A DNA stretch of 64,000 bases from Thermodesulfovibrionia bacterium (GTDB taxonomy: Bacteria > Nitrospirota > Thermodesulfovibrionia > UBA6902 > BMS3Bbin08): NCBI GenBank assembly GCA_030694425.1, contig JAUXYI010000079.1, forward strand, positions 1 to 64,000, read 5' to 3'. Position 1 is the stretch's first letter. Every line of letters begins with the position of its first letter. The translations under genes and the position numbers were made by a program. Below are positions 1 through 11,738 of this stretch, piece by piece. The notes beneath the pieces were generated by a model. That model was given only the letters and a program-made list of their open reading frames with translations, did no database searches and was not told where the DNA came from.

Positions 1-202
1 AGAGCACATTGCTTTTTCCGTCATTCCCGCAGTCCTTAAGCGGGAATCCAGTATTTTCTTTGGTTTTCCTGGATTCCTGCTGGAGTTTATCCCGTGTTTC
101 ATACGGGGCAGGAATGACTACTTATGAGGCTTTACTAATGAACTCATTAGTAACTAACATATTGTCTTGTAAGTCTACGACTCGTAGAGGAGACTATCGT
201 TC

Positions 203-391
203 ATGACAAAAAAACACGATAATATTAAATGTAAAGAATGCCAGGGAAATCTAAGATTAGTAATGGGCTGAAGAAATGTACATCTGCGCTGCATGGATTG
301 CAGCAGAAATTATTCACTACAGGAATATATCAAGGAACTGGACGAAACAAGCTTAAGCAGTTTATCTGCCCTCTCATGCGACCGGGTATAA
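203..391 (+). CDS. Candidate small dual-CxxC selenoprotein (TGA at 269-271 read as Sec)
   Basis: Manual translation MTKKHDNIKCKECQGNLRLVMG[TGA]RNVHLRCMDCSRNYSLQEYIKELDETSLSSLSALSCDRV*. Two CxxC motifs flank the TGA, a GAGGAG Shine-Dalgarno lies about 10 nt upstream, and a hairpin CTGCA-TGGAT-TGCAG follows the TGA. Confidence 0.6.
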
Positions 392-458
392 ACAAATATT
401 AAAATTTAGACCGTCTACGACTCGTCTATGACCCATAGGGTAGAACGGATAATACCAA

Positions 459-6393: not shown

Positions 6394-6437
6394 GTAGCCG
6401 CAGGCTTTAGTCTACGACTCGTAAAGCCTGCGGCTAC
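6394..6437. repeat. Long perfect hairpin (16-bp stem, 12-nt loop gtctacgactcg)
   Basis: gtagccgcaggcttta-gtctacgactcg-taaagcctgcggctac. Confidence 0.9.
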
Positions 6438-10858: not shown

Positions 10859-10883
10859 AGTTTTAGTTTTGTTAAAATGTTTC

Positions 10884-11738
10884 ATGGCAAGACCATTAAG
10901 GATAGAGTATGCAGGGGCAGTATATCATGTAACCTCAAGGGGCAATGCGAGAAAGAATATTTTCAAAGATGATAAAGATAAGGAAATATTTCTTGAAGTA
11001 TTAGGGAGAGTTGTAAAGAGGTATAATTGGTTATGTCATGCCTATTGCTTGATGGGTAATCACTATCATCTTTTAATAGAGACGCCTGACGCCAATCTGT
11101 CAAAAGGGATGAGACAGCTCAATGGGGTATATACACAGAGGTATAATCAAAGGCATAAAAAGACAGGGCATATTTTTCAGGGTAGGTATAAAGCAATATT
11201 GGTAGAGAAAGAGAGTCATCTACTTGAACTATGCCGGTATGTGGTATTAAATCCTGTAAGAGCGGGAATAGTAGAAAGACCTGAAGACTGGAAATGGAGT
11301 AGCTATTTAGCAACCGCTGGAATAAAGAGAGCACCAGAGTATCTGACAACGGACTGGATACTTGGACAATTTGAGAATAAGAGAAGAGATGCCGAGAAGC
11401 AATATAAAGAGTTTGCCATATCTGGAATTAAGGAAGAATCTCCGTGGAAAAAACTTCAAGGTCAGGTATTGCTTGGAGGGGAAGGATTTATAGAGAAATT
11501 CAGAGACTTATTATCTAAGAAAGAGGATATGAGAGAGATACCGAGACTCCAGCGGTATGTATGTAGACCCAAAATTGGAGATTTATTTAAAAGAGAAAAA
11601 ATATCAACCAAGCACATAAGGAATGGAAAGATATATAATGCTCATATAAAATATGGCTACACCCTTAAAGAGATTGCTGATTTTTTAGGTATTCACTACA
11701 CTACGGTAAGCAAGGTAATAAAGGGGAAAGAAGATTGA
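10884..11738 (+). mobile_element. REP-associated tyrosine transposase (Y1_Tnp / RAYT) with C-terminal HTH
   Basis: MARPLRIEYAGAVYHVTSRGN, 'CLMGNHYHLLIET', 'VVLNPVRAGIVERPEDWKWSSY', terminal 'IADFLGIHYTTVSKVIKG'. Confidence 0.95.

What the first reader, a model, noticed from the sequence alone, without database searches (positions are those of the whole stretch)
203..391. Candidate small selenoprotein with two CxxC motifs and in-frame TGA
The sequence reads MTKKHDNIKCKECQGNLRLVMG-TGA-RNVHLRCMDCSRNYSLQEYIKELDE..., open on both sides of a single TGA (269-271). The TGA sits between the two CxxC motifs. A stem-loop CTGCA-TGGAT-TGCAG lies about 20-33 nt downstream, with GG in the apical loop, the arrangement of bacterial SECIS elements (compare GCAGGUCUGC in E. 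coli fdhF). It has a good RBS and is invisible to standard ORF calling. From memory, a family annotated as 'dual CXXC motif small (seleno)protein' exists, in which this position is Cys or Sec. That family membership needs checking.
Basis: partly seen in the sequence, partly recalled or inferred. Interest (0 to 1): 0.85.

Follow-up and report, generated by a model that had tools for sequence, protein, structure and literature searches.

The report
Small selenocysteine-containing zinc-ribbon-like protein
A 62-residue bacterial protein with selenium-bearing selenocysteine between two metal-binding-type cysteine pairs is real and belongs to an already named family of unknown function, and in this phylum the family is nearly always kept with selenocysteine and lost with the selenocysteine machinery.

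Summary
Window 203-391 encodes 62 residues with one in-frame TGA (269-271) between two CxxC motifs. It passes the NCBIfam model NF041197, "dual CXXC motif small (seleno)protein" (55.9 bits, cut-off 40), known in the literature as OS_HP3. The genome has selA, selB, selC (anticodon UCA) and a selD that itself carries a TGA. I aligned 98 distinct relatives without gaps: codon 23 is TGA in 94 and TGC/TGT in 4, never another codon, and all stop at the same column. A 6-bp stem with a GG pentaloop follows the TGA. In TGA forms its codons are held fixed (Arg20 is CGC in 73/75, against 17% at other Arg sites), and the outer pair shows compensatory changes, so this is a genuine SECIS embedded in the second CxxC. 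In 200 genomes of the phylum the gene tracks selA (65 of 86 selA+, 3 of 114 selA-). Most likely it is a zinc-ribbon-type redox protein with Sec in the hairpin turn. The fold is predicted only; metal binding, chemistry and partner are inferred. It is a new member of a known family. What stands out is that, in this phylum, the gene is usually lost rather than converted to Cys.

The parts
203..391 (+). Gene of the dual-CxxC small selenoprotein, 62 aa plus TAA stop: MTKKHDNIKCKECQGNLRLVMGURNVHLRCMDCSRNYSLQEYIKELDETSLSSLSALSCDRV
   Evidence: Translation with TGA=U; NCBIfam NF041197 55.9 bits, cut-off 40; 98 gapless relatives
269..271 (+). In-frame TGA read as selenocysteine (Sec23)
   Evidence: Column is TGA in 94, TGC/TGT in 4 of 98 relatives
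288..304 (+). Apical stem-loop of the bacterial SECIS: GCTGCA / TGGAT loop / TGCAGC, made of the codons of residues 29-34 (alignment codons 20-25)
   Evidence: 97.6-97.7% of cells paired, codon constraint in TGA forms, compensatory outer pair
188..192 (+). Shine-Dalgarno-like AGGAG, 10 nt before the ATG
   Evidence: Sequence reading; relatives of the order begin at a similar place
230..241 (+). First CxxC (CKEC), presumed first zinc knuckle
   Evidence: Cys invariant in 98 relatives; a strand follows it in the model
290..301 (+). Second CxxC (CMDC), presumed second zinc knuckle, overlapping the SECIS
   Evidence: Cys invariant in 98 relatives
377..379 (+). C-terminal Cys (Cys59, alignment column 50), candidate resolving thiol
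   Evidence: Cys in 81 of 94 TGA forms; role inferred only

Best explanation
This is a genuine selenoprotein gene. Ribosomes reach UGA 269-271, SelB binds the stem-loop at 288-304 and delivers Sec-tRNA(UCA), and a 62-residue protein is made (strongly supported by comparative evidence, not shown biochemically). The protein is most likely a small zinc-ribbon-type domain: the two CxxC pairs hold one zinc ion, Sec23 lies in the turn of the beta-hairpin between them, and a helical tail ends in a mostly conserved Cys. I infer that it is a redox or nucleophilic protein in which the exposed selenolate reacts with a substrate or partner and is resolved by the tail Cys or by an external thiol. Partner and substrate are unknown. 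Confidence in the selenoprotein part alone is about 0.96; the figure given is for the whole account.
For: Family: NF041197 above cut-off. Sec machinery is complete: SelA 538 bits, SelB 362 bits adjacent to selA, tRNA-Sec 73.8 bits with anticodon tca, SelD with an in-frame TGA. Column 14 of the family is U 94 / C 4 of 98, with a common stop at codon 54. RNA constraint: Arg20 CGC 73/75 against 71/423 elsewhere (P 4e-44), TGC at the stem Cys codons 182/188 against 170/269 (P 7e-20), 97.7% paired against a synonymous-codon null of 82.9 +- 1.1%, loop second base G in 90/94. Co-occurrence with selA has P 5e-30. AlphaFold2 models put Sec in the turn between two strands (residues 16-21 and 26-30 in the window protein).
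Against: Models have only moderate confidence (mean pLDDT 70 and 74), and no PDB match is significant (best E 0.27). Pfam gives nothing above cut-off. The tail Cys is missing in 13 of 94 TGA forms, so it cannot be strictly required. Neighbouring genes differ from lineage to lineage, so context does not name a function. P values treat related sequences as independent.
Confidence: 0.6

Rival explanations
1. The TGA is an ordinary stop and the frame is a decayed or fortuitous ORF.
For: Read-through frames of this length with one TGA are common in the window (38). The window copy lacks the common Trp42 and Arg48.
Against: 98 relatives keep the frame, both CxxC and the stop position, with only TGA/TGC/TGT at the column. 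Trp42-to-Leu also occurs in other intact members (L073, L074, L080). The stem keeps its codons.
Confidence: 0.02
2. TGA is reassigned in this organism (Trp, Gly or Cys) or read by a cysteine tRNA rather than as Sec.
For: The only alternative residue in the column is Cys.
Against: Many family members end in TGA as their true stop. No Trp or Gly occurs in the column. A tRNA-Sec with anticodon tca and SelA/SelB/SelD are present. The SECIS is constrained in TGA forms.
Confidence: 0.02
3. The protein is a selenium or metal carrier, or a structural zinc protein, in which Sec is a metal ligand rather than a reactive residue.
For: Small size, four invariant Cys plus Sec, no enzyme-like domain.
Against: Sec is predicted in the hairpin turn between the two CxxC pairs rather than next to them. 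Four Cys already suffice for one zinc (general knowledge of zinc ribbons).
Confidence: 0.2
4. A zinc-ribbon accessory factor of the transcription or translation machinery that places Sec into a large complex through its hairpin tip.
For: Downstream neighbours include rplM-rpsI, rpsT, gltX and asnS in different families (gene names from reading the sequences). Many of the weak fold matches are RNA polymerase and initiation-factor zinc ribbons.
Against: Fold matches are not significant. Housekeeping genes are common neighbours by chance, and other lineages have argG, purH-like, YacP-like, patatin-like or PilZ genes instead. The pattern was seen after the fact.
Confidence: 0.1

Closest known systems
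NCBIfam NF041197, dual CXXC motif small (seleno)protein (hypothetical protein OS_HP3; PMC13188914, PMC9312934)
   Same: Passes the curated cut-off over all 53 profile positions; same dual CxxC with Sec between them
   Different: This copy has Leu in place of Trp42 and Arg48, and a 9-residue N-terminal lead before the first Cys
Bacterial SECIS elements (E. coli fdhF type)
   Same: Short stem directly downstream of UGA, small loop with GG, overlapping coding sequence
   Different: Only the 6-bp apical stem is conserved here; no long lower stem was seen in the family alignment
Zinc ribbons such as RPC10/RPB9, and the small zinc-finger protein ZifS (8yoz)
   Same: Two CxxC pairs around a beta-hairpin; among the best but non-significant structure matches
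   Different: None of these structure matches reaches significance, so homology is not shown

Membership tests
NF041197 dual CXXC motif small (seleno)protein | Score above the curated cut-off of 40 bits | tested here: met
   55.9 bits as protein with C for U; 47.1 bits in the genome search with the TGA read through
NF041197 dual CXXC motif small (seleno)protein | Two CxxC motifs with Sec or Cys between them at one column | tested here: met
   98 relatives: U 94, C 4
NF041197 dual CXXC motif small (seleno)protein | Sec is actually inserted | not testable with these tools
   Needs 75Se labelling or mass spectrometry
Bacterial SECIS | Stem-loop at the right distance after UGA with G in the apical loop | tested here: met
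   Stem 16 nt and loop 22 nt after UGA; loop second base G in 90/94
Bacterial SECIS | Selection on the RNA structure beyond the protein | tested here: met
   Codon constraint and pairing above a synonymous-codon null; compensatory outer pair
Bacterial SECIS | SelB binding | not testable with these tools
   SelB gene present; binding not tested
Sec-decoding organism | selA, selB, selC, selD all present | tested here: met
Zinc ribbon | Two CxxC knuckles around a beta-hairpin | tested here: inconclusive
   Cys invariant; strands predicted either side of Sec, but only with moderate confidence
Zinc ribbon | Significant similarity to a solved zinc ribbon | tested here: not met
   No Foldseek match below E 0.001; the low E-values in the profile search are short stretches of C2H2 fingers
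Zinc ribbon | Zinc content | not testable with these tools
   Needs purified protein

The most novel reading that the evidence does not exclude
A protein family in which selenium is close to obligatory in this phylum, and whose Sec sits on the tip of a zinc-ribbon hairpin that reaches into a large machine (RNA polymerase or ribosome). This would be a selenium-based probe or redox sensor of gene expression.
Probability: 0.07. Interest if true: 0.8.

Novelty: new member of a known kind. Interest (0 to 1): 0.33.

Why it matters
The family is catalogued but has no known function. The deep-learning selenoprotein finder deep-Sep is reported to have missed one known member (OS_HP3 in Desulfosarcina widdelii, PMC12013277). 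The result shows the gene is widespread in this order of Nitrospirota (34 of 40 genomes) and that its SECIS is written into the codons of the second CxxC. It also shows the gene tends to be absent with the Sec machinery rather than present as a Cys form. That points to chemistry that sulfur replaces poorly, and it gives a clean set of Sec and Cys forms for experiments.

Tried and rejected
The 28-sequence alignment was too variable for the search for related loci, so an 8-sequence alignment was used. tRNA adjacency was tested as a shared context and found in only a few loci, three of them sharing the same neighbours. Conserved neighbours as a functional clue: none shared across lineages. Two TGA-form genomes without selA or full selB (G146, G041) looked like counter-examples, but both carry a selD with an in-frame TGA, so an assembly gap is the simplest reading. 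Zhang and Gladyshev 2007 (the first description of OS_HP3) is not held in the library. An NCBIfam scan of the neighbours failed on wrong coordinates and was not repeated.

Full report
Observation. Window 203-391 reads as one frame with a single TGA at 269-271 and a TAA at 389-391, giving MTKKHDNIKCKECQGNLRLVMGURNVHLRCMDCSRNYSLQEYIKELDETSLSSLSALSCDRV. Standard ORF listing does not show it. Such frames are not rare by themselves: the window holds 38 single-TGA read-through frames of at least 46 residues, and a loose CxxC-U-CxxC pattern occurs twice. The case therefore rests on homologues and on the genome.

Family. The protein, with Cys for Sec, scores 55.9 bits against NCBIfam NF041197, "dual CXXC motif small (seleno)protein" (cut-off 40). 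It is the only copy in the genome. Two reviews list the family as hypothetical protein OS_HP3 (PMC13188914; PMC9312934); the first cites Zhang and Gladyshev 2007 for it. No function is given in the passages read. The paper on the deep-Sep predictor reports missing the OS_HP3 of Desulfosarcina widdelii (PMC12013277).

Machinery. The genome has SelA (538 bits), SelB next to it (362 bits), tRNA-Sec with anticodon tca, and SelD (335 bits). SelD itself carries an in-frame TGA in KAGGUAGK.

Relatives. In 200 genomes of the phylum, 70 match the family. Two of these (G006, G016) are partial matches inside large ORFs and are left out, leaving 68. SelA is found in 86 of the same 200. Both are found in 65. 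Three genomes have the gene without a SelA match: G192 has the Cys form and no selA, full selB or full selD, while G146 and G041 have TGA forms and a TGA-bearing selD, so their selA and selB are probably missing from the assemblies. Fisher's test on 65/21/3/111 gives P 5e-30, ignoring shared descent. A scan of GTDB genomes gave 64 loci; those whose titles name a group are all Nitrospirota, and a few are named only as "bacterium". Because the query was built from Nitrospirota sequences, this does not show the family is restricted to that phylum; OS_HP3 is reported from Desulfosarcina too.

Column test. 98 distinct relatives align without gaps from the first Cys to the stop, which falls at codon 54 in all of them. 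Codon 14 of this alignment (residue 23 here) is TGA in 94, TGC in 2 and TGT in 2. Many members end in TGA as the true stop, so TGA is not reassigned genome-wide. The four flanking Cys are invariant and Tyr33 nearly so.

SECIS. The stem GCTGCA/TGCAGC with loop TGGAT begins 16 nt after the TGA and coincides with codons 20-25, which include the second CxxC. In an alignment of 35 TGA forms, 97.6% of the cells pair. The outer pair changes G-C to U-A or C-G, and slid versions of the structure pair in 17-53%. In 94 TGA forms Arg20 is CGC in 73 of 75 but Arg elsewhere is CGC in 71 of 423. The two stem Cys are TGC in 182 of 188 against 170 of 269 elsewhere. Pairing is 97.7% against 82.9 +- 1.1% when codons are redrawn synonymously. 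In the four Cys forms the stem Cys codons are TGC in only 3 of 8, which is what relaxed selection would give, though four sequences are few.

Structure and mechanism. Two AlphaFold2 models (mean pLDDT 70 and 74, with Cys in place of Sec) show a beta-hairpin with the Sec position in the turn between strands, then two short helices. No PDB match is significant; the top ones include small zinc-finger proteins and polymerase zinc ribbons. From the two CxxC pairs I infer one zinc site. Cys59, near the C-terminus, is conserved in 81 of 94 TGA forms and could resolve an oxidised Sec, but it is not universal. Redox function is inference from the Sec/Cys exchange and from what is generally known of selenoproteins.

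Context. Neighbours change from lineage to lineage: rplM-rpsI-argC in much of the order, a YkgJ-like/YacP-like pair, rpsT, a purH-like gene, argG, gltX-glnS and others (names other than Pfam hits are my reading of the sequences). G203, a genome of the same family, shares the window's order: selenoprotein, PilZ gene, DeoC/LacD-type aldolase, zinc alcohol dehydrogenase. Translation genes recur, but this was noticed after the fact and was not tested.

Verdict. It is a new member of a known, uncharacterised selenoprotein family. The added observations are the coding-embedded SECIS with measured codon constraint and the tendency, in this phylum, for the gene to be absent rather than in a Cys form when Sec machinery is absent.

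Noticed in passing
window 173-189, 413-425, 6410-6422: A dispersed palindrome TCTACGACTCGTAGAG: 28 exact copies of its 12-base core in the genome against 0 for the reversed control; two copies flank the selenoprotein gene, the first overlapping its Shine-Dalgarno sequence. The 16-base form is present in 6 of 40 genomes of the order, up to 22 copies.
   Followed up: partly
window 414-445 and G000:C28 near 78851: A longer compound form, TCTACGACTCGTCTAYGACCCRTAGGGTAGA, occurs after the selenoprotein gene and about 850 bp from the tRNA-Sec gene; probably coincidence.
   Followed up: no
window 10869-11738: IS200-like (Y1_Tnp) transposase, 59.7 bits; possibly of the kind that moves short palindromic repeats, which would fit the dispersed motif.
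   Followed up: no
L049 (G000:C57:785-1699): The selD gene of the same genome has an in-frame TGA (KAGGUAGK), with a stem GTAGGTCC/GGACCTAC close downstream.
   Followed up: partly
L074 (G170): This genome has selA and two SelB genes but the Cys form of the family and no full SelD match.
   Followed up: no
G080:C1:1672647-1672763: A second, partial family match (25.7 bits, one TGA) beside the main copy: possible paralogue.
   Followed up: no
L199 / L208 (G207): The match to the window protein in this genome contains a TAA as well as the TGA: possible decay, frameshift or assembly error.
   Followed up: no
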